64,000 nucleotides of DNA from a candidate division BRC1 bacterium HGW-BRC1-1 (GTDB lineage: Bacteria; Sumerlaeota; Sumerlaeia; Sumerlaeales; Sumerlaeaceae): positions 62,001 to 126,000 of the forward strand of contig PHCB01000007.1 in the NCBI GenBank assembly GCA_002842095.1. The letters run 5' to 3'. Positions 6,494 through 28,909 of the stretch are shown here, one piece after another; positions within the stretch are counted from its first letter, which is position 1, and each line of letters begins with the position of its first letter. The translations under genes were made by a program, and so were the position numbers. The notes beneath the pieces were generated by a model. That model was not told where the DNA came from. It did no database searches and worked only from the letters and a program-made list of their open reading frames with translations.

Positions 6494-7326
6494 GCTTTCA
6501 ACCCCGAGAGATGGATGCCTTCCACAAAGGTTTTCTGCATGAAGAGGAAAAGGAGAATGACGGGAACGATCATGATGGTGGAGGCGGCCATGAGGAGATG
6601 CCACTCGGCAGCGTGTTGGCTTACGAATTGTTGAAGCCCGATAGAGAGGGTGTACATGCGGTCGTCGTTAAGGTAGATTAACGGCCCGAGGAAGTCGTTC
6701 CAGGCGGCCGTGAAGGTGAAGAAGGCAACCACCATGAGGGCCGGGCGTGAGAGGGGAAGGACGAGGCGCCAATAGATGTCGAAATGCGAGCAACCATCGA
6801 TGCGGGCCACGTCGATGAGGTCGCGGGGGATGGTGCGAAAGAACTGCATGAGCAGAAAGACAAAGAACGCGGTGGAAAAAAACGCGGGGATGATGAGCGG
6901 ACGATAACTGCCGACCCATCCCAGATTCTTGAAGATGATGAAAACGGGGATCATGGTGACCTGTCCAGGGAGCATCACTGTGGCGAGCATGACGAGAAAA
7001 AGGGGACGCGACCACCGCCATCGCACCACGGCAAAACCGTAGGCTACCAGAGAGCAGGAAAAGAGTGTGGCGAAAGTCGAGGTTAGTGCTACAAAGATGG
7101 TGTTCCACGCGTAGCGAATGAATGGGATGGTGTTGACGGCCTCCACATAGTTCTGCCAGCAGACAGGACTGGGCAACCAGTTCGGGGAGGACGAAAATAT
7201 CTGAGCGGGGGGTTTGAGTGATGTGCTGACAAGCCACGCGAAGGGTAGCGCAAAGACGATAGACAACGCGAGAAGCGAGGCGTGCCCAGTGACGGAGACG
7301 ATGGCGTCGGCGGAGCGGCGGTTCAT
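6490..7326 (-). CDS. ABC sugar transporter permease (MalG type)
   Basis: Inner-membrane permease of the carbohydrate uptake-1 family, 278 residues from the ATG at 7326 (MNRRSADAIVSVTGHASLLALS). The longer upstream frame is Ser/Pro-rich and overlaps the other permease gene, so it was rejected. About six membrane helices are visible. The EAA loop that contacts the ATPase is LIDVARIDGCSHFDIYWRLVLPLSRPAL. The substrate is unknown beyond 'sugar'. It follows the MalF-like gene by 4 bp and overlaps the binding-protein gene by 4 bp, a tightly coupled operon. Confidence 0.92.
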   Translation of the reverse strand: MNRRSADAIVSVTGHASLLALSIVFALPFAWLVSTSLKPPAQIFSSSPNWLPSPVCWQNYVEAVNTIPFIRYAWNTIFVALTSTFATLFSCSLVAYGFAVVRWRWSRPLFLVMLATVMLPGQVTMIPVFIIFKNLGWVGSYRPLIIPAFFSTAFFVFLLMQFFRTIPRDLIDVARIDGCSHFDIYWRLVLPLSRPALMVVAFFTFTAAWNDFLGPLIYLNDDRMYTLSIGLQQFVSQHAAEWHLLMAASTIMIVPVILLFLFMQKTFVEGIHLSGLKA

Positions 7327-7330
7327 GGTG

Positions 7331-8266
7331 TCAGCCTCCCTGATAGTAGACGCGCCGCGCGCTAACGCGGAACACGATGAGTGTGAGCACGAGAGTAATG
7401 AAGAAGAGAATCCACGCCTGTGCTGATGCGTAGCCCATCCGCCAATGGGGGAAGGCGTTGTTGAAAAGGCTGAGGGCGTAGAACAGTGTGGATTGCTCGG
7501 GCCCCCCGCCTCCGCCGGAAATGACGTAGGCTTGGGTAAAGTATTGGAAGCCGCCAATGAACCCCATGATGCCATTATAAAAAATGACCGGGCTGAGCAT
7601 GGGCAGCGTGATGTGGACCTGGCGGCGCCACCATCCGGCGCCATCGATCTCTGCGGCCTCGTGCAGGGATCGAGGCACATCCTGCAGCCCGGCGAGGAAG
7701 ATAAGCATCGTGCCGCCAACGCCCCACAAGCCCATGATGATGAGCGCGGGCTTGGCCCAGGTGGGATCGCTGAACCAGCCGGGTGCGGGCAGCGAGAGGA
7801 AGCCGAGACCGAGACTGGTAAGCCAGCCGTTGAAACTTCGAATGCCGACGTTGATGAGGCCGTAGTCGGGGTTAAAAAGCCACATCCAAAGAACCGACAT
7901 GGCCACCACCGGGGTGAGGCAGGGCAGATAAATGAGTGTCCGGTAAATGGAAATACCGCGGCGGCGTTGGTTGAGCATCATGGCGAGAGAGAGCGAGAAA
8001 AACAGACTGACGGGTACGCCGATGAGGATGATGTAGAAGGTGTTCTTGAGGCTGACGTAGAACTCCGGGTCGGCGAAAATAGCACGGTAGTTTTGCAGAC
8101 CGATGAACTGAGGCGGGCGCATGCCATCGTATGCGCACAGGCTGAGATAAATTGACGACCCCACGGGATAGACGACCCATAGGAGGAAGCCGAGAATCCA
8201 CGGCCCCACAAATAGGAGGCCGGTGAGATACTCATTATCGATGCTCTGGCGTTTCAACCGCAACAT
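7331..8266 (-). CDS. ABC sugar transporter permease (MalF/UgpA type)
   Basis: Inner-membrane permease, 311 residues, partner of the MalG-like protein. The N-terminus MLRLKRQSIDNEYLTGLLFVGP leads straight into the first membrane helix, as usual for this family. Six helices are visible. The EAA-loop motif is SLHEAAEIDGAGWWRRQVHITLPMLSP. It lies 39 bp downstream of a secreted glycosidase-like gene, consistent with one operon for extracellular cleavage and uptake. Confidence 0.93.
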   Translation of the reverse strand: MLRLKRQSIDNEYLTGLLFVGPWILGFLLWVVYPVGSSIYLSLCAYDGMRPPQFIGLQNYRAIFADPEFYVSLKNTFYIILIGVPVSLFFSLSLAMMLNQRRRGISIYRTLIYLPCLTPVVAMSVLWMWLFNPDYGLINVGIRSFNGWLTSLGLGFLSLPAPGWFSDPTWAKPALIIMGLWGVGGTMLIFLAGLQDVPRSLHEAAEIDGAGWWRRQVHITLPMLSPVIFYNGIMGFIGGFQYFTQAYVISGGGGGPEQSTLFYALSLFNNAFPHWRMGYASAQAWILFFITLVLTLIVFRVSARRVYYQGG

Positions 8267-8305
8267 GGAAAAACTCCGGTGCCGAGAACGTGGGGGAGTT
8301 TCATG

Positions 8306-10543
8306 TCAATGCCCCCGCGGTTGGTATTGAACGACGATGCTATTACGCGAAGTCTGAAGGGTGAGAACCATGAAATCCCCATCGCCCCAATGCGTTAGGG
8401 GGGGAGTCGTGGCGACTTCGTCAATGGTGAGGGTCGCCTCATAGCCGGGGTACACCGGAACGAGAAGAGTGGCGGGCACGGTGGCAGGCGAAGTGCCCGA
8501 GTCGGGCGCGACTACCGCGAACTTCATGCTAAAGGGCGCCGCGAAAGGTGTCGTTCTGTTTGAGGCGAACGGATATTCGATGGTGACGCCGTTGGTATCG
8601 GCGAATGTGATTTCTTCGATATGGGGCAAAACGGGGATGGACTTCGGGAATGCGTAGCGAGATGCGGAGGATTGCGTGTCGATGATTTCAGGCCCGGAGA
8701 TGGCGCGGGCGTGGTTATGGATATTGGCGATCCAGCCCGGTTGCGGTGCGTTTTGCGCGGTGAGGTTCATGGTGGTGGCGCACAGCCAGCCGTTACCCAG
8801 TTTGCGATGCACAAGAACCGGCTGTTGGTTGTCGGCACGTCGCGCGGCCACTTCCCAGCCGGGTGCAATGTGGTCAAAGGCGCGGGTGGTTGATGTCCCC
8901 CACTCGGCGATGCGTGCATTGGTGATGCGCAGCGGCTCCGCCAAAAGTGGCGAAGTGGTGGCGTCCTCGGCGATGCGAACTGCTGCGGGAGGCTGTGGCG
9001 CGGTCCATGTTAGTGCCATTTCTTCGGGTAACCAGGGCAGTTTCGCATCGGCGGTTCCTGTGTCGAGCAGCACGAGGCTGCCGCCTGAACGTACCCAGTT
9101 GATGAGGCGAGCCGACTGCACAGGGAACTCATCGCCCACTTCGCGGTTGGCGATGTAGATGACGCGATAGTTGTCGAGGTCGAGCCTGGTAAGGTCTTCC
9201 ATGGCCCGGATTGGGTTGCGCTCGCCGTAGTAGAGCACGTCGTGGCGATCAATGCCGGCGTCACGGAAGGTGCCCGGCGCTGTGCGCGTGAGTGCGTTGG
9301 GCGTGTAAAATTCGCCCATCACAAGTGTGTCGCCGAGGCGTGTGGGGGTGTCGAGTGTGTTGCGGAAATTGGGGAATATGAACAGATTGTAGTGGGCGAA
9401 ATCGACCATGGGGATAAGGTCGGAGACTTCGAAACCGTTCTCGACGGTGGGAGGCCATTTTTTGCTGTCGAAATAGCTGGCGTAGAGACGATCGCCGTTC
9501 TGCGTCCACTGAGTTTCGTTCATGAAACGCAACAGGTACCAGATCACCCAACCACCGGTTTCGTTGGCGCGTGCGTAGCGTGGCGTTTCCCACCAGCGAT
9601 CGAGGCGCGGGAGGTTTCGGTTGATGGAGCGCATCGCCTTCATCTGGCGGGCTTGCAGCGGTTCGTCGATGAGCCAGCTGTCCAGGTAGAGGTTGGTTGT
9701 GGCTGTGTAGGTATACTCCCAATAGGCCCAGAACGGGTCGACCTTGGGTCGGTCGTCGAGGTAGAACGGCATGAGATAGGTGGGGATTTGGAAGCGGCCG
9801 GACGCGGCATCATGGCGGATGTAGGCCCACTGGGAGAATAGCTCGTGAGGCTCGAACCAACCGAGGTCGAAGGAGTCGCGCCACAGGCGCAGGGTGGCGT
9901 CGTACTTGGCGGCGCGTGCGGTGTCGCCCATGATTTCCATCACTGTTTTGGCGAGGACGAAGCCCTTCCAGTACAGCAGGCGCTCGTGGTTATAGGTGTT
10001 GTTCTGAAAGGGAAAGTGCTGCAGGTGCCAGTCGTAGGCGTCGGCGATGACTGCGTAGTTTTCCTCGATGATGGTGCGGTCGCCGGTAATCATGTAATAG
10101 AGGACGGGGGGGATGATGAAGCTCTGCGCCCAGCAACCGTGGGCATCCATACCATGGTAGACTTCTTCGCCGCATTTGCCAGATATGTATTGGGCGTGGT
10201 GTGGCTCGGCGGAGCGGAGGAAGTCGATGGCCTTCCGCATCACTTTGAGGGCGCGAGGGTCGCCTGTGTAGAGGTAGCAGCGCGCCATGTTTTCGGCCAT
10301 GCCTGCGGGGTGATCAACGAATGAGCTGGGAATGTGGAAATCCGGCGAAACGGGTTTGAAGTACATGTTGCCGTTGGGCCACTGGCATTTTTCGGTGTAG
10401 TCGATGACCGTCTTGAGCACATCGATGGTATTGTTGGCGGGCGGTTGCTGCGGGTTGGGTGCGGCTTGGGCAACCAATGGCAGAATGAGGGCGCATACGG
10501 CTGCCCGTAATCCGGTGGTGAGGCGGGAGGATGATGCCATCAT
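8306..10543 (-). CDS. Large secreted protein, six-hairpin glycosidase-like
   Basis: 745 residues with a signal peptide ending near VAQA-AP. Residues ~35-420 look like an all-helical glycosidase barrel: repeated aromatic/Trp-rich helices such as HPAGMAENMARCYLYTGDPRAL and NNTYNHERLLYWKGF. Residues ~460-560 resemble the class-I glutamine amidotransferase-like domain found in the middle of some glycosidases (DRHDVLYYGERNP, VIYIANREV, INWVRSGGSLVLLDTG), followed by a beta-rich C-terminus. No named family is certain. Position between the Gfo/Idh gene and the permeases ties it to the same sugar pathway. An alternative start is the next Met, one codon in. Confidence 0.7.
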   Translation of the reverse strand: MMASSSRLTTGLRAAVCALILPLVAQAAPNPQQPPANNTIDVLKTVIDYTEKCQWPNGNMYFKPVSPDFHIPSSFVDHPAGMAENMARCYLYTGDPRALKVMRKAIDFLRSAEPHHAQYISGKCGEEVYHGMDAHGCWAQSFIIPPVLYYMITGDRTIIEENYAVIADAYDWHLQHFPFQNNTYNHERLLYWKGFVLAKTVMEIMGDTARAAKYDATLRLWRDSFDLGWFEPHELFSQWAYIRHDAASGRFQIPTYLMPFYLDDRPKVDPFWAYWEYTYTATTNLYLDSWLIDEPLQARQMKAMRSINRNLPRLDRWWETPRYARANETGGWVIWYLLRFMNETQWTQNGDRLYASYFDSKKWPPTVENGFEVSDLIPMVDFAHYNLFIFPNFRNTLDTPTRLGDTLVMGEFYTPNALTRTAPGTFRDAGIDRHDVLYYGERNPIRAMEDLTRLDLDNYRVIYIANREVGDEFPVQSARLINWVRSGGSLVLLDTGTADAKLPWLPEEMALTWTAPQPPAAVRIAEDATTSPLLAEPLRITNARIAEWGTSTTRAFDHIAPGWEVAARRADNQQPVLVHRKLGNGWLCATTMNLTAQNAPQPGWIANIHNHARAISGPEIIDTQSSASRYAFPKSIPVLPHIEEITFADTNGVTIEYPFASNRTTPFAAPFSMKFAVVAPDSGTSPATVPATLLVPVYPGYEATLTIDEVATTPPLTHWGDGDFMVLTLQTSRNSIVVQYQPRGH

Positions 10544-10594
10544 GTGACGTTTCCTTTTATTTGCAGACGGCGGGTGTGCGCCTCTGCGGGTTCG

Positions 10595-11557
10595 TTAAAC
10601 TTGTTGGTAAACCTGGTCGACTACGCGCATCGACTCGATGGCGTCGCGCTCGGTGACTAAAGACTCAACGGCTTCGCCGCGAACGAGGGCGGAGAAATGG
10701 CGGAGTTGATTCGCAAATCGTTCGCCGGCATTTTCCACGGTGATCTCTGTCGAAGAGTTATCTTCTTTTTGCCAGATGACGCGATCGGGATGCGAGTAAT
10801 CGAAACTGAGTGAGCCGCCCGTGCCGTAGACAGCCAGATCGGCGCGGCCATTGGCGACCGCCCAACTGGCGGCGAGGGAACCGAGCACGCCACTCTCGGA
10901 GTGCAGGGTGATGAGGGCGGAGTCTTCCACGTTGATCCCGAAGCCAGCCGAAGTCGTGCTGGAAGTCACTTGAGCGGCATAACCCACCAGAGCATGAAAG
11001 AGGTCGATGGAGTGCACGAGCGTGTCCATCACCACTCCGCCGCCGCTGACTTCAGGGCGCGTGTACCATCGATTCAGGAGCGACTTGGCTGGTCCCCAGA
11101 ACTGATTGTGCACGAAGAGCGGTTCGCCGATGGCGCCCTCGCTGATCATGCGACGCATGCAAACGGTGGAGGCGGCGTGGCGATGGCAGAAACCGGGGAT
11201 AAGGCGCACCCCGGCAGCAGCGGCTTGGGCGAGCATAAAAATGGCCTCCTTTGCATTCATCGCGACGGGCTTTTCGCACAGGACGTGAAGTCCGTGTTGG
11301 AGCGCCTGAAGGGTGCACGATGAATGTGAGGATGGGGGCGTGGCGACGATCACGCACTGGATGTCGTCGCGCGTGAGCAGCCCGGAGAGGTCCGGGTGAG
11401 CCGTGCAATTTGCGGCCGTGGCACCACGTTGCAGGGCCTCGGGGTCAATGTCGTGAACGCCCACTACGCTCATGCCCGGGACACGCTGGATGGCCTCGAG
11501 ATGGACGGCGGCAATCCCGCCATAGCCGATGATGCCGCATCCGATGGTTGTGTTCAC
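10595..11557 (-). CDS. Gfo/Idh/MocA family oxidoreductase
   Basis: NAD(P)-dependent sugar dehydrogenase-like enzyme, 320 residues, cytosolic. The N-terminal Rossmann fold starts CGIIGYGGIAAVHLEA (glycine-rich nucleotide-binding loop), followed by ATPPSSHS and the family hallmark CEKPVAMN containing the catalytic-region Lys. The C-terminal sheet contains GGGVVMDTLVHSIDLFHALVG with the expected D..vH..D. It is the first gene of the leftward operon and probably handles an oxidised or unusual sugar released by the secreted proteins encoded after it; the exact substrate cannot be read from the sequence. Confidence 0.92.
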   Translation of the reverse strand: MNTTIGCGIIGYGGIAAVHLEAIQRVPGMSVVGVHDIDPEALQRGATAANCTAHPDLSGLLTRDDIQCVIVATPPSSHSSCTLQALQHGLHVLCEKPVAMNAKEAIFMLAQAAAAGVRLIPGFCHRHAASTVCMRRMISEGAIGEPLFVHNQFWGPAKSLLNRWYTRPEVSGGGVVMDTLVHSIDLFHALVGYAAQVTSSTTSAGFGINVEDSALITLHSESGVLGSLAASWAVANGRADLAVYGTGGSLSFDYSHPDRVIWQKEDNSSTEITVENAGERFANQLRHFSALVRGEAVESLVTERDAIESMRVVDQVYQQV

Positions 11558-11635
11558 AAGGTGCCTCCTGCTGCGGGGGGTGATGATGGAAACAAGGTGA
11601 ACGGGTGAATCGAGAGGGGAGTCAAGAAATAATTC

Positions 11636-11709
11636 AAGCCCTTGTAATTTTTTGATTGACTACCGTCAGCCGCCTGACGCAATCGGTCTATCCAAGAATT
11701 CAAGGGCTT
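11636..11709. promoter_or_regulatory. Nested inverted repeat between divergent operons
   Basis: The 346-bp gap at 11558-11903 has no gene. In it lies an outer inverted repeat (AAGCCCTTGTAATT at 11636-11649 against AATTCAAGGGCTT at 11697-11709, one bulge) that is nearly concentric with a perfect inner palindrome CGTCAG-CCGC-CTGACG at 11664-11679. The AT-rich flanks could hold promoters in both directions. Candidate operator for the LacI-family protein encoded at 17381, or a transcribed hairpin; the sequence alone does not decide. Confidence 0.5.
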
Positions 11710-11903
11710 TAAATTTTATGTGCCAAGAGCACAATTCGATCGCATTTTTTTGCGGTGGACGGAAGGAGGGACCTGGCCTGACAGCAAAGACGCAGTGTGA
11801 AGTGCCTTTCGTCATGCGGAAGGAATGTTGGAGGCGCGGGAGCAAACGGCTCCCAACCACATCACCCCCTCCTCAGAACAGGGGGCTAAGGAGATTCGGA
11901 AAA

Positions 11904-13079
11904 ATGAAACACCTCTTCGCAACACTTGCAATTACCACACTACTCGCAGCCCCCGCATTGGCATCCAATTGGGAAGTTGTGGCTGCCAGCGGCAACTTCT
12001 CGGCCCCCGCCACGTGGAGCCTCTTGAGCGGCACCGATGTCAACGCCGACGGTCTGCCCGACGCGGGTGATAACGTGACGATCCCGACCGGGAAGAAGTT
12101 GTGGATGAACCAGAGCACGGATTTGGGCGACGTGGTCGTGGATGGCGCTATGTGTGGTGCTCTTAACGGTGCAACGCCCATTGCTTACGTCCACAAGATG
12201 AACAACCTGACAGTGAACGGCAACCTCGAACTGGTAGATGGCCGCGCCCCGGGCACCGTGACGTATGATGTCAACAATCTCATCGTGAATACCGCAGGTG
12301 GCTTGTACAGCTCCCGTTTCGCAGCAGCGACCAAGCCCGAGCAGACCGTTCCGATCCTGAAGATCGGCACCAACTTCACGATGTCGTCGGGAAGAGCATT
12401 CCCCATCTATCCGCTTAATTTCGGCGGCACGTTTTACTCAATGGCTCAGCTTGAATTCTCAGGCGCGGGCGCGGCCACCGTCAACTTCACGATCGCATCA
12501 ACCGTGGAATTTGGCAAGGTCACCGTGCCGGCTGGCAAGTCGGTCACCTTCTCGGGCGTCGGCACAGGTCTTTACGTTGGGAACGATCTCCAGACCAATG
12601 CTCCCAACCCCTTCCTGGTAAAAACCGGCGGCGAAGCGCTGTTTGAGCAGTCGACGCCAGCAACGCTTTGTTTTGCTTGGGGCACCGGCTATCTGGAAAC
12701 TGAAGCCGACGCAATTGTCGGCACTTCGCACCCCGAGGGCTTTACAGGCGGCTGGCAGAAATTCACTGCGTTGGCAGGAACACCCGTCGTCAATGCGAGC
12801 ACAGTCTTTAAGTTCTTCGGTGCGCAGACGCAGGCACTGGGCACGCTCATTGGCGCAAGCGTGTACAAGGTGATCCTCGACAAGACCGGCGGCTCGGTTA
12901 ACATGGAGAAGGACCTCACCGTGGCAAAATTGGCCCTGTTAAACGGCACCATCAACACGGGTGCATTTACCATTACAGGCCCGAACACACTGGCCGATCT
13001 CACGCAGATCAGCGGCAACATCGTTGGCAACTGGGTGAAGCCGTGGCTGGCGAGCGTTGCCGGCTGGGATAAATACTGA
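11904..13079 (+). CDS. Secreted beta-rich (G8-like) surface protein
   Basis: 391 residues from the ATG at 11904, which follows AAGGAG at 11888-11893; the upstream extension of the frame is not protein-like. Signal peptide MKHLFATLAITTLLAAPALA. The mature start (WSLLSGTDVNADGLPDAGDN, then VTIPTGKKLWM) resembles the 'W....P..GD.VTIP.G' opening of G8-type domains. The remainder is a series of short beta strands rich in T, V, N and G, as in right-handed beta-helices. No catalytic motif is visible. It is closely followed by a terminator and then by the prepilin gene. Function unknown; probably extracellular. Confidence 0.65.
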   Translation: MKHLFATLAITTLLAAPALASNWEVVAASGNFSAPATWSLLSGTDVNADGLPDAGDNVTIPTGKKLWMNQSTDLGDVVVDGAMCGALNGATPIAYVHKMNNLTVNGNLELVDGRAPGTVTYDVNNLIVNTAGGLYSSRFAAATKPEQTVPILKIGTNFTMSSGRAFPIYPLNFGGTFYSMAQLEFSGAGAATVNFTIASTVEFGKVTVPAGKSVTFSGVGTGLYVGNDLQTNAPNPFLVKTGGEALFEQSTPATLCFAWGTGYLETEADAIVGTSHPEGFTGGWQKFTALAGTPVVNASTVFKFFGAQTQALGTLIGASVYKVILDKTGGSVNMEKDLTVAKLALLNGTINTGAFTITGPNTLADLTQISGNIVGNWVKPWLASVAGWDKY

Positions 13080-19836: not shown

Positions 19837-20039
19837 TGGCCTTCGCGAAATGCTGGGAGGCAAAGGGTGATTCTGGGGTTTCCGACTACTTGATCGGAAA
19901 TCAAAAGTTTCGCTGTGGTTGCAATGAAAGCGACTGATTCAGCGTCCCAATGCATCCTGCACGGAAAGAACCCGACCTTGACGGTGATGCTACCGGAGTT
20001 AAATCGCTATCGTTGGTTAGAAGGCCTGAACTGTTTATA

Positions 20040-20067
20040 GCAGGTTCGAATCCTGCCGGGCGCACCA
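20040..20067 (+). other. tRNA 3'-end fragment
   Basis: T stem GCAGG, loop TTCGAAT, stem CCTGC, acceptor strand CGGGCGC and ACCA are intact. No matching GCGCCCG acceptor strand, D arm or anticodon arm occurs in the preceding ~100 bases. Its first 19 bases equal 2261-2279 of the tRNA-Arg(CCU). Such a fragment is what integration into, or recombination at, a tRNA 3' end leaves behind. Confidence 0.6.
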
Positions 20068-20105
20068 ATCCCAATTCTTTAATGTATTGGTTATTACCGG
20101 GCCGC

Positions 20106-20134: not shown

Positions 20135-20240
20135 ACAACCTACAATTTTCGCAAACGTCAAAGTCCGAAGCGGTAGAAGATTATTTAGCAGTCTCTTTTT
20201 CCCTTTGAGTCGCTTTCTCATCCCAGATATTAGTTGAATT

Positions 20241-20295
20241 GCAACCGGCGTGCAACCGGCGTGCAACCGGTGTGCAACCGGTGTGCAACCGGTGT
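20241..20295 (+). repeat. Tandem repeat, 11 bp x 5
   Basis: Five contiguous copies of GCAACCGGYGT: two with C then three with T at the ninth base. The 11-bp period is close to one DNA turn, so bound proteins would face the same side. No replication or partition gene lies nearby. It may equally be a plain microsatellite-like expansion. Confidence 0.9.
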
Positions 20296-20450
20296 GCAAG
20301 ACCTCTTTAACGCCCATCGGGATAACGCCTTACAGATAGCTGCTGCGTTCTCTGAGAAGTCTTGTCTGGTGGGTGAACTTGGGCCTCTTGATTATGGATA
20401 TCATCGACTTCATCCCACAAGACCACCCGGCGCAGTCTTTGGGCGCTATT

Positions 20451-20518: not shown

Positions 20519-20557
20519 AGACCGGATGCCTGTCAGTAAGCACTCTCCCCAGGCGTT

Positions 20558-20629
20558 GGGCGCGTAGCTCAGCGGTAGAGCAGCGGACTTCTAAGGTGTT
20601 GGTCCTGGGTTCGAATCCCAGCGTGCCCA
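20558..20629 (+). tRNA. tRNA-Arg(UCU)-like gene with defective anticodon stem
   Basis: Acceptor GGGCGCG/CGTGCCC, D arm GCTC/GAGC and T arm CTGGG-TTCGAAT-CCCAG are all good. The 17-nt anticodon arm reads GCGGA-CTTCTAA-GGTGT. The loop gives anticodon UCU, but the stem has two mismatches next to the loop (A-G, G-G) plus two G-T pairs. CCA is not encoded. Possibly a decayed tRNA or one needing an unusual fold; a one-base shift would read CUA but pairs no better overall. Confidence 0.65.
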
Positions 20630-20766
20630 GCACTACCGCCAAAATTATACAAGTCCTGCATCTTCACCCGTAAACACGAGATTATTAAACGGTCCAAAAT
20701 TATGTTGACATCTCGGAATTGACCCTTCAAACGTTTTAATCCAAATGACTACGGTTCAACGGCTCG

Positions 20767-22539
20767 GTGATGCGTACGTCCACCTACACCTACAACGCGC
20801 TCAATCAGCTTGCATCGCTGCTGGGCGTGGCCCAAGGCGAGCGCTATGATGTGCAGTATGACGCCAACGGCAATCTTGTCTACTACGCGCTCGATCACAA
20901 GGGCGAGGCCGGAATGACCTACTCGTGGACCATCGACGACCGCCTGGCATCGGCGCGCGTGTCCGAAGACGGCTCGCCCGACGCTACTGTCAGCTATGCC
21001 TACGACGCTTCCGGCGCGCGCATCCTGCGCCGGGCACCCGACGGCACGCGCCAGCGCTATTTCTTCCACGGTCTTACAGAGGAAGTGACCAAGCAGAGCG
21101 TCCCCGGTGTGGCGAGTGACACGGCGTCTGCCTGCACGCGTGTGCTGGACGGGTCATTCATCCCCGCGCAGTGGATTGCGCCCTCGGGTAATGTGGCCGG
21201 CGCGTGGAACACCGCCCGGCGCAGTGAAGCTGTGTCGGTGGCGGGCAACACGTATGCCATCCACGGACGCGACTATCGCGGCGGTGGTGCAATGTCGTAT
21301 GACTACAGCGTCACGGGCAAACGCGTGATGAGCGCCTGGGTGCGCAGCGCGGGCGATGCGGAGTTCATCGTGACGGTGCAGAGCAACCAGCAGTTGCGAG
21401 GCCTGCGCTATTGCATGTTCACGAGTAGTAACGATGCGGTGCCGTTCGTCTATTGGCCCAATCTGGCGCTGTTTGGCAGCACGTTGCGGCCCGACGGTGC
21501 ATGGCATCGCATCGAGCGCGACCTCGCGGCGGACCTCGCGGCGGCGTGGCCGGGGGAGACGCTGGTGGCCGTGCGCGGCACCACCTACGCCGCCTACACG
21601 GCAGCGCCGGTGTTAGTCGACGACATCGCTTTCAGCAACGCCATCACCGTGGAGCACAACGTCCTCGGCCCCGGCGAGGTCGCCCACATCCTGCGCACCC
21701 GCACCACCACCGGCCCCGCTGGCGGCTATGCGGCAACCGACGCATGGTACGCCTTCAACCAAGTGGGCAGCGTGCTGAACCACAGCAACTCCAGCGGCGC
21801 CATGACACAGGCGATCGACATGGACGCTTGGGGAATTCCCACAAACGGTACTAACGGATCCTGGAATTCAACCGAGTTATACAGAACCCTGAACAGCAAA
21901 CGGTTCGAATCAAATGCATCGACCGTGTTTTTCTGGCAAAGATGGGCTGACCCGTCCATCGGAATGTTCCTGTCTCAAGACCCGGTAGTTAAGACACGTA
22001 ATCGGACAACGCTGCTTGAGGGTTCACCGGTTATCAACCTGGATCCAAAGGGACTGGACGTATTGGCACTGTTTGATCCAGCTGCGGAAGTTGCTGGAAT
22101 ACAATGCGGTCATCCGGCCGTGATTGTTTGCATGGAAGGGGTGGGGTGTTTTTATTTCTCGTGGGCTGCAAACGATCGGACCACACCGGATGACAACCTT
22201 ACAATTAGATATTACTGTTCGCTTGACGATGCAAAAGCGGACCCTGACCTTGAGAGATACAAGGAGTATAGAAAGTGGACGCGGGGTCGCCGCCAAGATA
22301 TGGCGGCTATTTTGGCTGGTTTATCGTTCAATGGTAAAGAATACGAAATCGCCGGGCGTAACTGTAGCGATTTGCTTTACGTTATGCTTCGCGCTGGTGG
22401 CGTCTCCCCCGCTCAAGTTAAGGACAATTGGAGGCCATCCGATGATTGGAATGCTTTAACCAATCCAGATACCGGCGGATGGTCAAGACCTTGGCCTGGG
22501 CAGCCTAGCGGGTATCCGAAGCAATGTTGCAAACCGTAA
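20767..22539 (+). CDS. Orphan RHS tip 1 with permuted-papain-like C-terminus
   Basis: 590 codons. The frame opens after a TGA at 20746 with no convincing ribosome site, so this is the 3' end of an RHS gene cut from its 5' part. Residues ~1-110 carry YD-type repeats (YDANGNLVYYALD, SYAYDASGARILRR). Residues ~145-305 are a beta-sandwich insert shared with the other tips. RHS core ends around QRWADPSIGMFLSQDP and LDPKGLD. The distinct C-terminal ~155 residues have GHPAVIV, then YFSWA, then GRNCSDLLYVMLRAGGV. A His early and an N-C pair late is the order seen in permuted papain-fold (LRAT/NlpC-like) enzymes; this is inference. The tip is visibly more AT-rich than the core. Confidence 0.75.
   Translation: MMRTSTYTYNALNQLASLLGVAQGERYDVQYDANGNLVYYALDHKGEAGMTYSWTIDDRLASARVSEDGSPDATVSYAYDASGARILRRAPDGTRQRYFFHGLTEEVTKQSVPGVASDTASACTRVLDGSFIPAQWIAPSGNVAGAWNTARRSEAVSVAGNTYAIHGRDYRGGGAMSYDYSVTGKRVMSAWVRSAGDAEFIVTVQSNQQLRGLRYCMFTSSNDAVPFVYWPNLALFGSTLRPDGAWHRIERDLAADLAAAWPGETLVAVRGTTYAAYTAAPVLVDDIAFSNAITVEHNVLGPGEVAHILRTRTTTGPAGGYAATDAWYAFNQVGSVLNHSNSSGAMTQAIDMDAWGIPTNGTNGSWNSTELYRTLNSKRFESNASTVFFWQRWADPSIGMFLSQDPVVKTRNRTTLLEGSPVINLDPKGLDVLALFDPAAEVAGIQCGHPAVIVCMEGVGCFYFSWAANDRTTPDDNLTIRYYCSLDDAKADPDLERYKEYRKWTRGRRQDMAAILAGLSFNGKEYEIAGRNCSDLLYVMLRAGGVSPAQVKDNWRPSDDWNALTNPDTGGWSRPWPGQPSGYPKQCCKP
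21205..21534 (+). repeat. RHS module R1, copy A
   Basis: 330 bp closely matching 25149-25478 with constant offset 3944 and no indels. It encodes NTARRSEAVSVAGNTYAIHG through GAWHRIERDLAAD, the first half of the beta-sandwich insert. It is the point at which tip 3 joins the shared core. Confidence 0.9.
21524..21833 (+). repeat. RHS module R2, copy A
   Basis: 310 bp closely matching 23637-23946 with constant offset 2113. It encodes AADLAAAWPGETLVAVRGTT through MTQAIDMDAWG, the second half of the insert plus an RHS repeat. Similarity ends exactly where tips 1 and 2 diverge. Confidence 0.9.
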
Positions 22540-22635
22540 TGTCATTTGGGCGGCCTTTTGGGACGGACCATTAGCTCGTGCTGAATCATTCTCGTTTTGT
22601 TGCCGTCGTCGTGGCAACGATTGGAGGTATATAGC

Positions 22636-23451
22636 GTGGGTCGGTTAGGCGTTCAGTTGGCGCATGCGGTGCTTGGTGTCTCACTGTTTGTGGCTGTCGC
22701 ACTTTGTCTGCTGATGGTGCATTTTCCCATCGGTTTTGGCTTGGGTGCGGTTAGTTACGCGATCGTGGTTTTGTCGCTGAAACGGACTTTCGAGCGGAGT
22801 GGGGAAGAGCGTGGCATTCTGCACTCGAAGGCATGGTTCTTCGTTATTTATCTGGCTTTGCTCTTTGTTGCCTATTGGCGTTTACCTGCGGCTGCCATCG
22901 GTCCAAACTCAGCGGTCATAGGGGCTTTTGGTACACCTGCGAGCGCAAGCGCAACCGTTCGCGGTTTACTCGATCTGCTGCTCCTGCTTGCGGCAGTTCA
23001 GTTCTTCCTTTGGATTTCAAGTCGGAACACCCATAGAGGCGTTTCTCCTGCGGCAAGGACTAGTCTGGCATTCTTTGTGGTGTTTGGGATTATCGAAGCG
23101 TCCCTCTTATTCGGCGGGCTTACCGACTATGGTTTTGAAACCACGTCTCTGTGGTTGTTCTTTATTATCTATGCGGCTCTCCCCGAGGGTTGTGTCGCTT
23201 TGCTCCTCCAAAATCCCCCGCCATTGACGGACAGGATTGGTTTAGAACAGCGGGTCGGTTTAGCCTCAGGCGCGGCGCTTCTGGTGGCGATTACATTGAA
23301 CATGAATCCTGGGTTGTATGGCATTAATGAGAAGTTCAAAGATGCAACGGTCGTCTACGCTATTGCGGGCATTCAAATCGTAATCTGGGCGGTTCTTGCT
23401 CTGGTAAAGAATCTTCTGGCCTCACTCCGCACGCGGCATCTGCAAGGATGA
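22636..23451 (+). CDS. Polytopic membrane protein, candidate immunity to tip 1
   Basis: 271 residues from a GTG at 22636 with GGAGG at 22623-22627 (8-nt gap); this is better supported than starts further upstream. Seven or eight hydrophobic helices (VLGVSLFVAVALCLLMVHFP, GLLDLLLLLAAVQFFLWIS, TSLWLFFIIYAALPEGCVAL and others). No family recognised. It sits directly behind RHS tip 1, the usual place for a cognate immunity gene. An eight-helix immunity protein would be unusual for a soluble cytosolic toxin and hints at a membrane or periplasmic target. The role is inferred from position. Confidence 0.6.
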   Translation: MGRLGVQLAHAVLGVSLFVAVALCLLMVHFPIGFGLGAVSYAIVVLSLKRTFERSGEERGILHSKAWFFVIYLALLFVAYWRLPAAAIGPNSAVIGAFGTPASASATVRGLLDLLLLLAAVQFFLWISSRNTHRGVSPAARTSLAFFVVFGIIEASLLFGGLTDYGFETTSLWLFFIIYAALPEGCVALLLQNPPPLTDRIGLEQRVGLASGAALLVAITLNMNPGLYGINEKFKDATVVYAIAGIQIVIWAVLALVKNLLASLRTRHLQG

Positions 23452-23455
23452 GGCT

Positions 23456-24607
23456 TTGGGTTGGCGTGGGAATTTACTTTACTCCAACAGCACGTGCGCT
23501 GAGGATGCTTTGGATGGCTACGACCATCTGAACAGTTTGGTGAACCGTGCGGTTGACGGAGGTTTGATTTCGCCGTTGAACAATAACTATGACGCAGTGG
23601 GAAACATTATGCGGATTGGTCTGCCGGACGATAGTATCGCGGCGGATCTCGCCGCAGCGTGGCCGGGCGAGACGCTGGTGGCCGTGCGCGGCACCACCTA
23701 TGCCGCCTACACCGCAGCGCCCGTGTTTGTCGACGACATCGCTTTCAGCAACGCCATCACCGTGGAGCACAACGTCCTCGGGCTTGGCGAAGTGGCCCAC
23801 ATACTGCGCACCCGCACCGCCACCGGCCCCGCCGGCGGCTATGCGGCAACCGACGCATGGTACGCCTTCAACCAAGTGGGCAGCGTGATGAACCACAGTA
23901 ACTCCAGCGGCGCCATGACACAGGCGATCGACATGGACGCCTGGGGCAACACGCTCGCAGAAAATGGTTCATGGGTCGCCATGGAGCCAGCGGGTCGCTT
24001 TTATCAAAGCAAGGCGCACGATCCCTTCGCTAATTGCAATTATCACTTGAATCGATGGTATCAGCCGCAACTGGGTACATGGACCGCTTCAGATCTAATC
24101 GGGCGCCAAGGGGGTAACAATCTCTACCAGTTCTGCTTATCAGACCCGATTCACTTAGTGGACTACGACGGACTTTGCCCCGAAAGCGAGAAATGTGTGG
24201 CGATGATCTTGCGAGTGTACCAAACACATTGGGCTGCCGTTAATGCCAAGGCTAATGCAGACAGAATTGTTGCAAAAGAGAGCTTAGCAACATGTACTAA
24301 AAATGCGTTGATTGGGTTTAGGAACTGCTTGTTGTGGGGAGGTGCATCAACCGTAACCGTCGGTGTTGGCACACGCGCGGCTAAGCTTATTGTTCGTTCA
24401 ACAGCGACTACTTTAGGTGCTGGTATTAGTGTATTGGGCTGTGCTGCCGGGCTCAACAGCGCCTTGTCACAATGTCAAGATAGCTACTATCTGTCTAATG
24501 AAAGAATAAACAACTGGCAGGACGCAGAACGCCATCGGTTATTTAGGGGTCGGATTCAGGAAGAGGCAAACTGTGAGACGCTTTGCACGGAGACCTGTCC
24601 GAAATGA
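23456..24607 (+). CDS. Orphan RHS tip 2 with Cys-rich hydrophobic C-terminus
   Basis: 383 codons opening at a TTG four bases after the membrane-protein stop; the start is uncertain. Residues ~1-60 hold RHS repeat traces (NNNYDAVGNIMRIG). Residues ~61-165 are the shared R2 module. The RHS boundary is HLNRWYQPQLGTWTASDLIG to VDYDGLC. The last ~135 residues form a separate domain with a glycine/alanine-rich hydrophobic stretch (TLGAGISVLGCAAGLNSALS) and several Cys, ending ANCETLCTETCPK. A membrane-active toxin is possible but unproven. The stop overlaps the next ATG (ATGA). Confidence 0.65.
   Translation: MGWRGNLLYSNSTCAEDALDGYDHLNSLVNRAVDGGLISPLNNNYDAVGNIMRIGLPDDSIAADLAAAWPGETLVAVRGTTYAAYTAAPVFVDDIAFSNAITVEHNVLGLGEVAHILRTRTATGPAGGYAATDAWYAFNQVGSVMNHSNSSGAMTQAIDMDAWGNTLAENGSWVAMEPAGRFYQSKAHDPFANCNYHLNRWYQPQLGTWTASDLIGRQGGNNLYQFCLSDPIHLVDYDGLCPESEKCVAMILRVYQTHWAAVNAKANADRIVAKESLATCTKNALIGFRNCLLWGGASTVTVGVGTRAAKLIVRSTATTLGAGISVLGCAAGLNSALSQCQDSYYLSNERINNWQDAERHRLFRGRIQEEANCETLCTETCPK
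23637..23946 (+). repeat. RHS module R2, copy B
   Basis: Second copy of the 310-bp module at 21524-21833. It is joined on its left to a different RHS repeat and on its right to a different tip, as expected if recombination takes place inside it. Confidence 0.9.
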
Positions 24608-25137
24608 AGATTCCCTGGTTTCAATACGAGCTGAGAGGACGCAAACTCGCGTTCTGGGTGGTGGTGTTACCGCTGCTATTTTTCGCGGGGCCGTATGGCG
24701 CTTCCATTCCCGACCGGGTGCGCCTTAGATGGTTTCTGGGCGAGCTGGCAGAAACGCGCTCGGCCAGCGAGATGAACGCCGTATATGACCGTGCGGCCGC
24801 ACAATTCACCATGTTGCAACCACCTGTTAGCCGTCCGGCAATTGCCGCATTTCGAAAGCAGTTGGTAGGCCATCGCTTGAGCGAGGCGCAACGCGTCTTT
24901 CTACTCCACAAGCTCGAAACAATCGGGGACATTCAGGCCGATCCGGGCATTTATGCCCAGATGGCGGAGGACCTTTCCTTGGCTGATGTTTACAAAAGGA
25001 ACCAATTTACTGTGGCAGATGATAACGTCGGGTTCGAAATCTATCAGCTTTTAATGTGGCATAATCGCGCTTTTCAGCAGCTTTACCCTGACTTACTTCC
25101 TGAGAGGAAAGGGGAAGGGATCGGAACTTTCTGGTGA
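24604..25137 (+). CDS. Single-pass membrane protein, candidate immunity to tip 2
   Basis: 177 residues; the ATG at 24604 overlaps the stop of RHS tip 2. One N-terminal membrane helix (LAFWVVVLPLLFFAGPYG, about residues 17-34) is followed by a charged helical domain (LGELAETRSASEMNAVYDRA, QMAEDLSLADVYKRNQF). No family recognised. Translational coupling to the toxin-like gene makes immunity the best guess. Its stop overlaps the first codons of tip 3, so the whole set forms a closely packed transcript. Confidence 0.6.
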   Translation: MKIPWFQYELRGRKLAFWVVVLPLLFFAGPYGASIPDRVRLRWFLGELAETRSASEMNAVYDRAAAQFTMLQPPVSRPAIAAFRKQLVGHRLSEAQRVFLLHKLETIGDIQADPGIYAQMAEDLSLADVYKRNQFTVADDNVGFEIYQLLMWHNRAFQQLYPDLLPERKGEGIGTFW

Positions 25138-26915
25138 TGGAAAACTTTTGGAACACCGCCCGGCGCAGTGAAGCCGTGTCGGTGGCGGGCAACACGTATG
25201 CCATCCACGGGCGCGACTACCGCGGCGGTGGTGCAATGTCGTATGACTACAGCGTCACGGGCAAACGCGTGATGAGCGCCTGGGTGCGCAGCGCGGCCGA
25301 CGCGGAGTTCATCGTGACGGTGCAGAGCAACCAGCAGTTGCGAGGGTTGCGTTATTGCATGTTCACGAGTAGTAACGATGCGGTGCCGTTCGTCTATTGG
25401 CCCAATCTGGCGCTGTTTGGCAGTTCGCTGCGCCCCGACGGCGCGTGGCATCGCATCGAGCGCGACCTCGCGGCGGACATCACTGTGCGTGCGACAACTG
25501 CCCAGGGAGCTGTTTCTGAGGCGGGCGGACATGCATTCGTGCCGAAAACCCCTGAACTGTTCGTGCACGACGATGACGGCAATCTCATCTCAGACGGGCG
25601 CTGGGCGTATACGTGGGACGGTGAAAACCGTTTGAACCGCATGGAGCCGCTTAGGGGTGCAGGCTATCCGGTGTCTCCCGTTGCACGCATCCAATACGCG
25701 TACGACTATAAGGGGCGTCGGGCACGGATGCAGGTTTATGGTCCAGACAACGATCCCCTTTGCTTTGACAAACCTCTGTCGGACATCTGCTATGTGTGGG
25801 ACGGTTGGAATCTTGCGGCCGAGCTCTCCCCGGTGGATGGCTCTACGGTGCGGCGTTACCTGTGGAATACGGCCAAGGGGCACAAGAGCCTTGGGGCGGT
25901 GCGGATGGGCGGCGGCTTTGGCGCAGCCTCGCCCCCCGCGCAGTTCGCCATTGTGGACGGCAACGATAACGTGAGCCTACTGCTCAACGGTGCGTCGGAT
26001 GGGGCGGGCGGGGGTGCGCCCGAGATGAGCGCCGAGTACGAGTACGGCCCCTTCGGCGAACCCCTGCGCGCCACCGGACCCCTGGCCAAGGCCAACCCCG
26101 TGCGCTTCAGCAGCGAACTGCTCGACACCGCCACCGGATGCTACTACTACGGATACCGCTACTACAATCCGGATACGGGAAGGTGGCTGAGCAGGGATCC
26201 GATCGGGGAGGACTTCGAGCCTATTCTCTACAGGTTTTCTGGGAACAATCCTGTTTCTATTGTGGATCATATGGGGCTGCTAATCGCCAATTGTATATGG
26301 GAGCCTGGAACTCAACCCGATCCTTGGCCATTTGACTCAGACGATGCACCGTACAAATCTGCTCGTCCAACAATGGGAGATTATAGCAGATACCATTATG
26401 TTGCTACCGTGTCCGAAATCCCCGGTCTTGGTTTATTAAGACCCAATGCCAAGGCAGCACTTAGACATTACATGATAGCGACTGGGCATGACAAGTCCTT
26501 TGACGCACGCAAGATGCTACGGGAAACGCCCGGGGCTTTTAACACAGTAAACGGTCAAGTATTGGGGGGGGTGAAGTGGTTGAAAGCAAACCGGGGCGTG
26601 CGCCAATTTGTTGCACACTCTCCACTTCCAGAATCCAATAAAGATGGGCCGTTTACAGCTTCCGGAAATGAGGACTGGTACACGGCCGTTGGAGGTTATT
26701 TTATGAGAATCCAGGGTACGGCGGTCTCTTCATGCCACCCGACAGCTCAAGGAAAACGCAAGGTTTACATGTCCATTGAAATCGCAGATCGATACAATTT
26801 CCATAATACCGGGGCGTCCACTGTTTTTGGAATTCCAGACGATGATTTCGCAAGGTTTCATAAAGGGACCTCTGAATTTTCACTTCTGTCATCTGGATGC
26901 TTCCTGCTGACGTAA
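25137..26915 (+). CDS. Orphan RHS tip 3 with unassigned C-terminal domain
   Basis: 592 codons from the ATG at 25137. The frame starts inside module R1, so it has no RHS N-terminus of its own. It then has RHS repeats (DDDGNLISDGRWAYTWDGEN, SAEYEYGPFGEP) and the classical RHS boundary (YYYGYRYYNPDTGRWLSRDP, then VDHMGLL). The last ~205 residues are a distinct domain with LRPNAKAALRHYMIATGHDK and VYMSIEIADRYNFHNTGAST. I cannot name its family. No immunity gene follows; a 68-bp gap leads to an IS element. Confidence 0.7.
   Translation: MENFWNTARRSEAVSVAGNTYAIHGRDYRGGGAMSYDYSVTGKRVMSAWVRSAADAEFIVTVQSNQQLRGLRYCMFTSSNDAVPFVYWPNLALFGSSLRPDGAWHRIERDLAADITVRATTAQGAVSEAGGHAFVPKTPELFVHDDDGNLISDGRWAYTWDGENRLNRMEPLRGAGYPVSPVARIQYAYDYKGRRARMQVYGPDNDPLCFDKPLSDICYVWDGWNLAAELSPVDGSTVRRYLWNTAKGHKSLGAVRMGGGFGAASPPAQFAIVDGNDNVSLLLNGASDGAGGGAPEMSAEYEYGPFGEPLRATGPLAKANPVRFSSELLDTATGCYYYGYRYYNPDTGRWLSRDPIGEDFEPILYRFSGNNPVSIVDHMGLLIANCIWEPGTQPDPWPFDSDDAPYKSARPTMGDYSRYHYVATVSEIPGLGLLRPNAKAALRHYMIATGHDKSFDARKMLRETPGAFNTVNGQVLGGVKWLKANRGVRQFVAHSPLPESNKDGPFTASGNEDWYTAVGGYFMRIQGTAVSSCHPTAQGKRKVYMSIEIADRYNFHNTGASTVFGIPDDDFARFHKGTSEFSLLSSGCFLLT
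25149..25478 (+). repeat. RHS module R1, copy B
   Basis: Second copy of 21205-21534. Right of it the sequence passes into a different RHS segment (DITVRATTAQGAVSEAGGHA) instead of module R2. Confidence 0.9.
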
Positions 26916-26983: not shown

Positions 26984-28155
26984 GGGGGTGCTGATCCGGG
27001 CGAAAGTGCCCGCGCAAGGGGCTTTTCAGGCCGTTTTCACTTCCGCTTCGTTGGTCAGGCACACCTGCCCCTTTCGAGGGCCACGGCTCGCGTGAGGTTG
27101 AAGGCCATCACGCCCATGGTCATTTGCATCATCACGCGGTCCATGCCGCGGTAGACTGCCCGCGCGCATCCGCGCCAGCGTTTGAGGCAGGCATTGGCCC
27201 CTTCGATGAAGCCGCGCATGCGCGCAATCGAGCGGTTGCGCCCGCGCTGCCACGGGGTCAGTTCCCTGCCCGGCCTGGCTCGGCGCATGATGGAGGCCCG
27301 GGCGCCGCGGCTGCGCACCAGTTCGCGCGCCGCGCGGCTGTCGTAGCCCTTGTCGGCCAGCACCTCGCCCTCCGTGCCGTCCACCAGATCGGCAAACATC
27401 TGTGAGTCATGGACGCTGGCCGCCGTCAGCACATGGTTGGTGATCAGGCCCGTCTCGCGGTCCTGCCCCAGGTGCAGTTTGAAGCCGTAGTGGGGCTTGC
27501 CGTTTTTGACCGTGAAGTCCGCGTCGGGGTCCAGGGGCGCCTTGGGCTGCCGCTCGGGCCCGTCACCGCCCTCGCCATCAGCAGCCCTGGGCTTGCGCGG
27601 CGGGCGGACGGCGGCATCCACCAGCGTCGCGTCGACAAGCTTGATGTGCCCCTTGCGCACCCCGATGCCCTGCTGCTCAAGCTGCACCGTCACCTCGGCG
27701 AACAGATCGTCGAGCAGCCCCGCCTCGCGAATGCGGCGCCGGAACACCACCACCGTCGTGTCATCGGGAACATTGTCGCCCGCCCCAAGACCCAGAAACT
27801 GCCGGAACGACAGCGAGTCGCGCGCCATCCAAACCGCATCGCGGTCGCTCAACTGGTAGAAACGCTCGAGCAGCAGGAGCTTGAACAGCATCACCGGATC
27901 CACCGGCTCGCGGCCCGCCCCGCCAAACTTGTACGCCTGCTCCAGACAGCCACGCAGTCGCTCCCAGTCGATCAACGTCGCCAACCGCTCAAGCACCTCG
28001 CTCTTGGGCGGCGCCGCCAGAAAACTGGAGAAAAAATCGGGGGAAGAAGTGCAAGACTTGCGGGCCATCGGAGAACCTTTCGTGCGCGGAGAGAATGACC
28101 CTAAACAAAAGCAAACATCATGCCGGAAACGGCGGGATGATTCTTCAGCAGTCCC
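26984..28155 (-). mobile_element. IS5-like insertion sequence
   Basis: One transposase gene bounded by short imperfect inverted ends: GGGGGTGCTGA at 26984 and, read inward from the right, GGGACTGCTGA ending at 28155 (9 of 11 match). The right end continues as AGAAT, like many IS5-group ends. I could not establish a target duplication with confidence. The element separates RHS tip 3 from a beheaded toxin at 28156, so insertion was probably accompanied by deletion. Confidence 0.7.
27055..28068 (-). CDS. IS5-family transposase
   Basis: 337 residues from the ATG at 28068 (MARKSCTSSPDFF). The N-terminal DUF772-type domain reads PVDPVMLFKLLLLERFYQLS with DRDAVWMARDSLSFRQFLGL. The DDE domain follows: first Asp in HIKLVDATLVDAAV, second in EVLADKGYDSRAARELV, and the Glu in MRGFIEGANACLKRWRGCAR, which corresponds to the family's Y(2)R(3)E-like region. 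The frame appears intact, so the element could still be active. Confidence 0.93.
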   Translation of the reverse strand: MARKSCTSSPDFFSSFLAAPPKSEVLERLATLIDWERLRGCLEQAYKFGGAGREPVDPVMLFKLLLLERFYQLSDRDAVWMARDSLSFRQFLGLGAGDNVPDDTTVVVFRRRIREAGLLDDLFAEVTVQLEQQGIGVRKGHIKLVDATLVDAAVRPPRKPRAADGEGGDGPERQPKAPLDPDADFTVKNGKPHYGFKLHLGQDRETGLITNHVLTAASVHDSQMFADLVDGTEGEVLADKGYDSRAARELVRSRGARASIMRRARPGRELTPWQRGRNRSIARMRGFIEGANACLKRWRGCARAVYRGMDRVMMQMTMGVMAFNLTRAVALERGRCA

Positions 28156-28295
28156 ATAAAGTTGGATTGTCTCGGGCATTCAATCACTATGGACTCAAAT
28201 CTATAAATCTTGTATTCGATGATATCAATGGCTACATTGATGGTCATAACGTAGATTATTCATTGCGGCAAGCTGTTGGTGCAGGTGCCAAGTGA
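28156..28295 (+). pseudogene. 3' remnant of an RHS toxin tip
   Basis: An open frame emerging from the IS end encodes KVGLSRAFNHYGLKSINLVF, then DDINGYIDGHNVDYSLRQAV and GAGAK before a TGA that overlaps the GTG of the next gene. It has no start of its own. The overlap with a membrane-anchored candidate immunity gene shows it is the tail of a former toxin gene. Confidence 0.6.
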
Positions 28296-28909
28296 GTAGA
28301 CCTACACTGACAATGAGGGGTTGCGCTATCAGTTCTTTGCGAGCCACGTTACGGTTTCTGGTTATTGCTAGCATTGGGGCGATGGCTTTCTATCTTGTAC
28401 AGTGTAATGCCGGGTTGCGAAAAGAACTCGCCAAGCTCGATAAGCCGCGCACGATCGTGGAGCCTGTCAGTGATGATCTGTTGCTTTATAGGGTTCTCGG
28501 CCTTCCCAAATCGGAAGGGTTACAGATTGAAAAAATCCATGTACCGGAATTACGATTCACCAACACGGTATCGATCCAGTTCCTCGATTTCAATGGTGTG
28601 ATGCCATCGAAACTTAAACAGGGACGCTGGGAGTATTCCCCGAATGACTTGATGTCCGCAGTGTCCACTCCACCCCCGCGCTGGGCCGCAGGAATTGTGT
28701 GGGAGGGAGAGGATTACTATCAGCGTTGGATGCCCATACGCCTGATGCGTCATGTATCAAAGGGTATTGCGATAGTAGAAGACACGAGTGTGTCGGTGAC
28801 ATTAACCAAATTACAAGGTGATGGTATTGAGAACAAGTGGTGTGTGTTTTTTGAATCAACACTTGTATCGAAAGAATGGCACGAGATATGCTGTACAGAA
28901 AATAATTAG
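28292..28909 (+). CDS. Membrane-anchored protein, candidate immunity of lost toxin
   Basis: 205 residues from a GTG at 28292 that overlaps the stop of the truncated toxin (GTGA). An N-terminal helix (FLVIASIGAMAFYLVQCNAG, about residues 21-41) is followed by a beta-rich soluble part. No family recognised. The gene is distinctly AT-richer than the RHS cores. It survives although its toxin has been beheaded, as an 'orphan antidote'. Confidence 0.6.
   Translation: MSRPTLTMRGCAISSLRATLRFLVIASIGAMAFYLVQCNAGLRKELAKLDKPRTIVEPVSDDLLLYRVLGLPKSEGLQIEKIHVPELRFTNTVSIQFLDFNGVMPSKLKQGRWEYSPNDLMSAVSTPPPRWAAGIVWEGEDYYQRWMPIRLMRHVSKGIAIVEDTSVSVTLTKLQGDGIENKWCVFFESTLVSKEWHEICCTENN

What the first reader, a model, noticed from the sequence alone, without database searches (positions are those of the whole stretch)
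21205..25478. A beta-sandwich insert in the RHS shell serves as the shuffling point
Modules R1 (330 bp, 21205/25149) and R2 (310 bp, 21524/23637) are near-identical without indels, adjoin and overlap by 11 bp in tip 1, and occur singly in tips 3 and 2. Tip 1 therefore looks like the parent of both. Each duplicate ends exactly where sequences diverge. The encoded region (SVAGNTYAIHGRDYRGGGAM ... DGAWHRIERDLAAD ... FVDDIAFSN) looks like a jelly-roll/lectin-type domain rather than RHS repeats, which is unusual inside a toxin shell.
Basis: partly seen in the sequence, partly recalled or inferred. Interest (0 to 1): 0.6.

Follow-up and report, generated by a model that had tools for sequence, protein, structure and literature searches.

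The report
Sandwich domain inside orphan Rhs tips
Three broken-off toxin-gene ends from a little-known uncultured bacterium share pieces of a sugar-binding-like domain that sits inside the toxin's shell; the pieces are ordinary leftovers of Rhs tip exchange, but a domain planted in the shell at this spot is a variant we did not find described.

Summary
R1 (21205-21534 / 25149-25478, 95.8% identical) and R2 (21524-21833 / 23637-23946, 93.9%) are gapless, end abruptly, meet at a 12-bp tandem repeat in tip 1, and occur nowhere else in this probable Sumerlaeota genome. The encoded insert is a self-standing beta-sandwich by prediction: AlphaFold pTM 0.79, closest to the beta-sandwich of glucuronyl C5-epimerase and to CFAP20, then to carbohydrate-binding modules. 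It is absent from a second Rhs array in the same genome (15 aa where tip 1 has 183). It sits at the same place in Rhs genes of four families of the class, once in a long Rhs protein with a signal-like N-terminus.

"Shuffling point" is only partly supported. The inner breakpoint cuts the domain in its single helix, so tips 2 and 3 each carry part of a domain. The insert-free array shows a 340-bp, 92% repeat at the same shell position, so exchange does not need the insert. This fits the known displacement of Rhs tips by homologous recombination, leaving orphan tips with core fragments of variable length. Tip 1 as parent of both is not shown; one second copy split at the helix is at least as good. 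The draft genome shows no full-length Rhs gene.

The parts
20767..22539 (+). Tip 1: 590-aa orphan Rhs C-terminal gene (RHS/YD repeats, beta-sandwich insert, end of Rhs core with DPKGL, variable C-terminus)
21142..21654 (+). Insert domain, about residues 126-296 of tip 1: beta-sandwich with one helix (GLCE/CFAP20 type); absent from the C9 Rhs of the same genome
21205..21534 (+). R1, reference copy (first two thirds of the insert)
25149..25478 (+). R1 copy at the start of tip 3, 95.8% identical
21524..21833 (+). R2, reference copy (last third of the insert plus RHS strands up to DAWG)
23637..23946 (+). R2 copy in tip 2, 93.9% identical
21520..21544 (+). 12-bp tandem repeat (GACCTCGCGGCG x2.1) encoding RDLAADLAA; R1/R2 breakpoint, in the domain's single helix
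22597..23451 (+). 284-aa hydrophobic protein after tip 1, by position the immunity gene (inferred)
   Evidence: no family match
23456..24607 (+). Tip 2: orphan Rhs tip, short RHS piece, then R2, Rhs core, another C-terminus
24583..25137 (+). 184-aa protein after tip 2, by position the immunity gene (inferred)
25134..26915 (+). Tip 3: orphan Rhs tip whose frame opens 15 bases before R1, then a different Rhs core lineage (Q) and another C-terminus
25476..25630 (+). Start of Q in tip 3; homology to the C5 orphan tip begins at GACATCACTG, at the end of R1
26021..26210 (+). 190-bp patch of tip 3 that is 94% identical to the C5 orphan tip, ending at DPIGE

Best explanation
The locus is an array of three orphan Rhs tips with probable immunity genes, derived from an Rhs lineage of this class whose shell carries a GLCE/CFAP20-type beta-sandwich inserted in a hairpin about 130 residues before the tip boundary. 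Shown: the insert (by comparison and prediction), its conserved position in four families, and that R1/R2 are mosaic homology arms. Inferred: the arms were left by homologous recombination between Rhs core sequences (tip displacement, probably through a circular intermediate), and crossovers fell inside the insert because it is part of the shared core there, in this case at a GC-rich 12-bp direct repeat. A second complete copy of the insert was most likely split, its C-terminal part going with tip 2 and its N-terminal part with tip 3. In intact Rhs proteins the sandwich probably sits on the outside of the shell as a binding or adhesion module (inferred from fold only).
For: Repeats and edges. 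Insert vs no insert: tip 1 residues 117-299 correspond to 15 aa in the C9 Rhs. Same position in G026, G029, G008, G031 and in a 1324-aa Rhs frame of G034 whose start looks like a signal peptide. Fold: domain model pLDDT 78.5, pTM 0.79; Foldseek TM 0.69-0.71 to GLCE and 0.6-0.7 to CFAP20, then CBM16 and CBM11; PF21174 matched by 14 of 16 members, best 2e-12. Mosaic arms elsewhere: C9 340 bp 92%, C5 190 bp 94% and 155 bp 78%, G029 548 bp 88% and 196 bp 93% with one tip starting inside the insert. All six Rhs cores in the genome lie in open frames of 267-603 aa. Published precedent: S. Typhimurium main/orphan rhs share 522 bp at 95% and recombine there (PMC3967940); tip displacement through circular intermediates with core fragments of variable length (PMC2935791); orphan modules retain variable amounts of upstream sequence (PMC3150448).
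Against: No second strain or same-genus genome was available, so no exchange is seen directly. The C-termini and the small genes between them match no toxin or immunity family. The left context of Q in its C5 relative is not the left part of tip 2, so a simple circle insertion between them is unproven. Tip 1's own match to PF21174 is below the curated cut-off (E 0.015). The genome is a draft of 34 contigs, so a full-length Rhs could be missing. How the insert packs on the shell is not modelled reliably.
Confidence: 0.72

Rival explanations
1. Two independent copyings from tip 1: R1 was copied into tip 3 and R2 into tip 2 by duplication or gene conversion.
For: Only tip 1 holds both modules next to each other and a complete domain.
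Against: The two inner ends coincide within 11 bp, which two independent 310-330-bp copyings would give in about 3% of random draws (post hoc). Divergence is nearly all synonymous, which is more easily explained if the second copy diverged while still an intact, used domain.
Confidence: 0.25
2. The insert is a dedicated exchange cassette: the domain or its 12-bp repeat is recognised by a site-specific system that shuffles tips.
For: The breakpoint lies on a perfect 12-bp tandem; in another family an orphan tip also begins inside the insert.
Against: The G029 breakpoint is roughly 10-15 codons away from the window's. The insert-free C9 array shows the same kind of repeat. Breakpoints cut the domain. 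No recombinase was recognised among the ORFs examined next to the array other than a transposase.
Confidence: 0.06
3. The array is decaying debris: broken Rhs ends with no present function, not used for tip replacement.
For: No full-length Rhs in the draft genome; tips 2 and 3 hold partial domains; a transposase gene and a toxin-like remnant follow tip 3.
Against: All three tips and the small genes between them are open over their whole length; substitutions show purifying selection at some time.
Confidence: 0.3

Closest known systems
Orphan rhs-CT/rhsI arrays and C-terminal tip displacement in Enterobacteriaceae (PMC2935791, PMC3150448, PMC3967940)
   Same: Tandem tips, each with a fragment of Rhs core of variable length and a following small gene; near-identical arms of a few hundred bp; abrupt edges.
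   Different: Arms here include an inserted beta-sandwich and are patchworks (R1 alone, R2 alone); no full-length Rhs gene lies next to the array or elsewhere in the draft genome.
D-glucuronyl C5-epimerase beta-sandwich domain (PF21174)
   Same: Best curated profile for the domain family (2e-12 for the best member) and TM 0.69-0.71 at 2.3-3.2 A for the tip 1 model.
   Different: No epimerase catalytic domain; sits inside an Rhs chain; tip 1 itself is below the Pfam cut-off.
CFAP20 / CFA20 domain
   Same: Whole-length fold match, TM 0.60-0.70.
   Different: Ciliary eukaryotic protein; about 15% sequence identity.
YD-repeat protein of an unrelated bacterial family (L067)
   Same: Same domain family planted inside an RHS/YD-repeat protein.
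   Different: Elsewhere in the chain, beside a second sandwich-like segment; not an orphan tip.

Membership tests
Orphan Rhs tip array | Several Rhs C-terminal fragments in tandem with unrelated C-termini after the Rhs core | tested here: met
   Rhs_assc_core in tips 1-3, over the curated cut-off in tips 2 and 3, below it in tip 1 (26.8 vs 32.5 bits); C-termini show no convincing alignment to each other
Orphan Rhs tip array | Fragments share near-identical core DNA that ends abruptly | tested here: met
   also C9, C5, G029
Orphan Rhs tip array | A full-length Rhs gene upstream | tested here: not met
   A tRNA and a DUF4434 gene lie upstream; all Rhs cores in the genome are in open frames of at most 603 aa. 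Draft assembly, so absence is provisional; the array is filed as tip-like remnants, not as a complete rhs locus
Orphan Rhs tip array | Each tip encodes a toxin neutralised by the next gene | not testable with these tools
   No family match for C-termini or small genes
Glce_b_sandwich (PF21174) | Profile score above the curated cut-off | tested here: inconclusive
   Tip 1 15.9 bits vs cut-off 27; 14 of 16 family members match at E<=0.1, best 2e-12
Glce_b_sandwich (PF21174) | Beta-sandwich fold | tested here: met
   Predicted model, Foldseek TM 0.69-0.71 to GLCE
Carbohydrate-binding module | Binds a glycan | not testable with these tools
   Only weak fold similarity to CBM16 and CBM11

The most novel reading that the evidence does not exclude
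Rhs shells of this class carry a surface binding domain planted in the RHS barrel near the tip boundary, and because it is part of the exchanged region, tip exchange can also swap or split the binding domain, so that toxin and target recognition are reshuffled together.
Probability: 0.12. Interest if true: 0.6.

Novelty: new variant of a known kind. Interest (0 to 1): 0.33.

Why it matters
Structures of Rhs effectors show a closed shell; a separate sandwich domain inserted in a shell hairpin would be a natural place for receptor or surface binding in bacteria where no Rhs delivery route is known. If confirmed it would suggest how such Rhs proteins attach to targets. The repeat mosaic itself is a further example of the known exchange of Rhs tips, in an uncultured phylum.

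Tried and rejected
Close relatives of the insert: none in genome contigs by single sequence, in IMG/VR, in phages or in plasmids. Single circle insertion of 23637-25478 into a contiguous tip 2-left/tip 3-right target: in frame and attractive, but the C5 relative of Q has a different left neighbour and no relative linking the two flanks was found, so left as a possibility. The first fold of the whole Rhs part (430 aa) had low confidence outside the insert, so nothing is claimed about how the insert packs on the shell. Papers: no report of a GLCE/CFAP20-type insert in Rhs surfaced in the searches made, which is weak evidence of absence.

Full report
Observation. The two modules are as described. 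R1 is 330 bp with 14 differences and R2 310 bp with 19, both without indels and with no matching base beyond any edge. In tip 1 they overlap by 11 bp at 21524-21534. The overlap lies on a perfect 12-bp tandem, GACCTCGCGGCG, at 21520-21544. The whole genome holds only these copies. Most differences are synonymous.

Where it is. The window lies in a 3.77-Mb draft genome. That is an inference; the genome itself is unnamed. Tip 1, a hydrophobic protein, tip 2, a small protein and tip 3 follow each other tightly on the + strand. Six Rhs core ends occur in the genome, all in open frames of 267-603 aa, on contigs C2 (this array), C9 and C5. No full-length Rhs gene is seen.

The insert. Against the Rhs gene on C9, tip 1 residues 4-116 and 300-449 align, leaving 183 residues in tip 1 against 15 in C9. 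The inserted stretch alone is predicted to fold as a beta-sandwich of about ten strands and one helix with pLDDT 78.5 and pTM 0.79. Foldseek places it with glucuronyl C5-epimerase (TM 0.69-0.71, down to 2.3 A) and CFAP20, then CBM16 and CBM11. Pfam's Glce_b_sandwich is matched by 14 of 16 family members, best 2e-12, but tip 1 itself is below the cut-off. The same domain occurs in tandem in large Campylobacterota proteins, in an FG-GAP-like giant protein and in a YD-repeat protein of an unrelated family.

Conserved place. Between 'YFF.GLTEE..K.S..G...DT.F' and 'E(R/H)N.L.PG.(I/V)' the insert is present in G026, G029, G034 and (contig end) G031, and in diverged form in G008: four families with the window's own. 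In G034 it sits in a 1324-aa Rhs frame that begins with a signal-peptide-like stretch and runs off the contig (signal peptide by eye only). So it is an old part of one Rhs lineage, not a recent oddity of this array.

Shuffling. The R1/R2 boundary falls in the domain's single helix (RDLAADLAA), so tips 2 and 3 hold complementary parts and neither holds a whole domain. In the G029 contig three tips share 548 bp at 88% and 196 bp at 93%, and one tip begins inside the insert a little upstream of the window's breakpoint. In the window's own genome the insert-free C9 array shares 340 bp at 92% beginning just after 'YYYDG', the spot that corresponds to the insert. Tip 3 and the C5 orphan share 155 bp at 78% and 190 bp at 94%. 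Arms of a few hundred bp in a patchwork are thus the rule with or without the insert. This is what is known from Salmonella, where main and orphan rhs share 522 bp at 95% and recombine there (PMC3967940), and from the tip-displacement model with circular intermediates and core fragments of variable length (PMC2935791).

Parent. Tip 1 could have given both copies. But the two inner ends coincide within 11 bp (about 3% by chance for independent events, post hoc), tips 2 and 3 together hold one complete second copy, and that copy has diverged mainly at synonymous sites, as if it had been an intact domain while diverging. A single second copy split by one rearrangement explains these together. It is not proven.

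Verdict. Observation confirmed; the domain claim holds as far as prediction goes; 'the shuffling point' should be weakened to 'part of the exchanged core'. The beta-sandwich insert in an Rhs shell is the more interesting half. Its function as a binding module is inferred from fold only.

Noticed in passing
20557-20631 (+): tRNA gene directly upstream of tip 1; ARAGORN calls it Pyl (cta), Rfam confirms a tRNA (55 bits). The loop TTCTAA suggests a shifted reading of an Arg (TCT) anticodon rather than pyrrolysine.
   Followed up: partly
19990-20068 (+): A second tRNA-like 3' end (GGTTCGAATCCTGCCGGGCGCACCA) 500 bp upstream that neither ARAGORN nor Rfam reports; possibly an integration-site remnant next to the array.
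   Followed up: no
20240-20299: 11-bp tandem repeat TGCAACCGGTG, 5.5 copies, between the two tRNA-like sequences.
   Followed up: no
27055-28179 (-): DDE transposase gene (DUF772, IS5-like) just after tip 3; no clear terminal inverted repeats found.
   Followed up: partly
28122-28296 (+): Open frame ending SHKVGLSRAFNHYGLKSINLVFDDINGYIDGHNVDYSLRQAVGAGAK, which looks like the end of another tip, directly before a 205-aa gene at 28292; suggests a fourth tip cut by the transposon.
   Followed up: partly
L043 (G000:C9) 8619-12673 (-): Second Rhs array of the same genome, without the insert, with a 340-bp 92% repeat between its two tips.
   Followed up: yes
L060 (G000:C5) 7020-8327 (-): Orphan tip related to tip 3's second half but lacking about 125 residues in its middle; patches of 78% and 94% identity.
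   Followed up: partly
L040 4312-5769 (+): Orphan Rhs tip with the insert whose N-terminus (MARIVLAGVPYHVTHRGNQR) looks like the start of a REP-associated transposase gene, from memory.
   Followed up: no
L031, L033, L034: Campylobacterota MAG proteins with the same sandwich domain in two to five tandem copies per open reading frame.
   Followed up: partly
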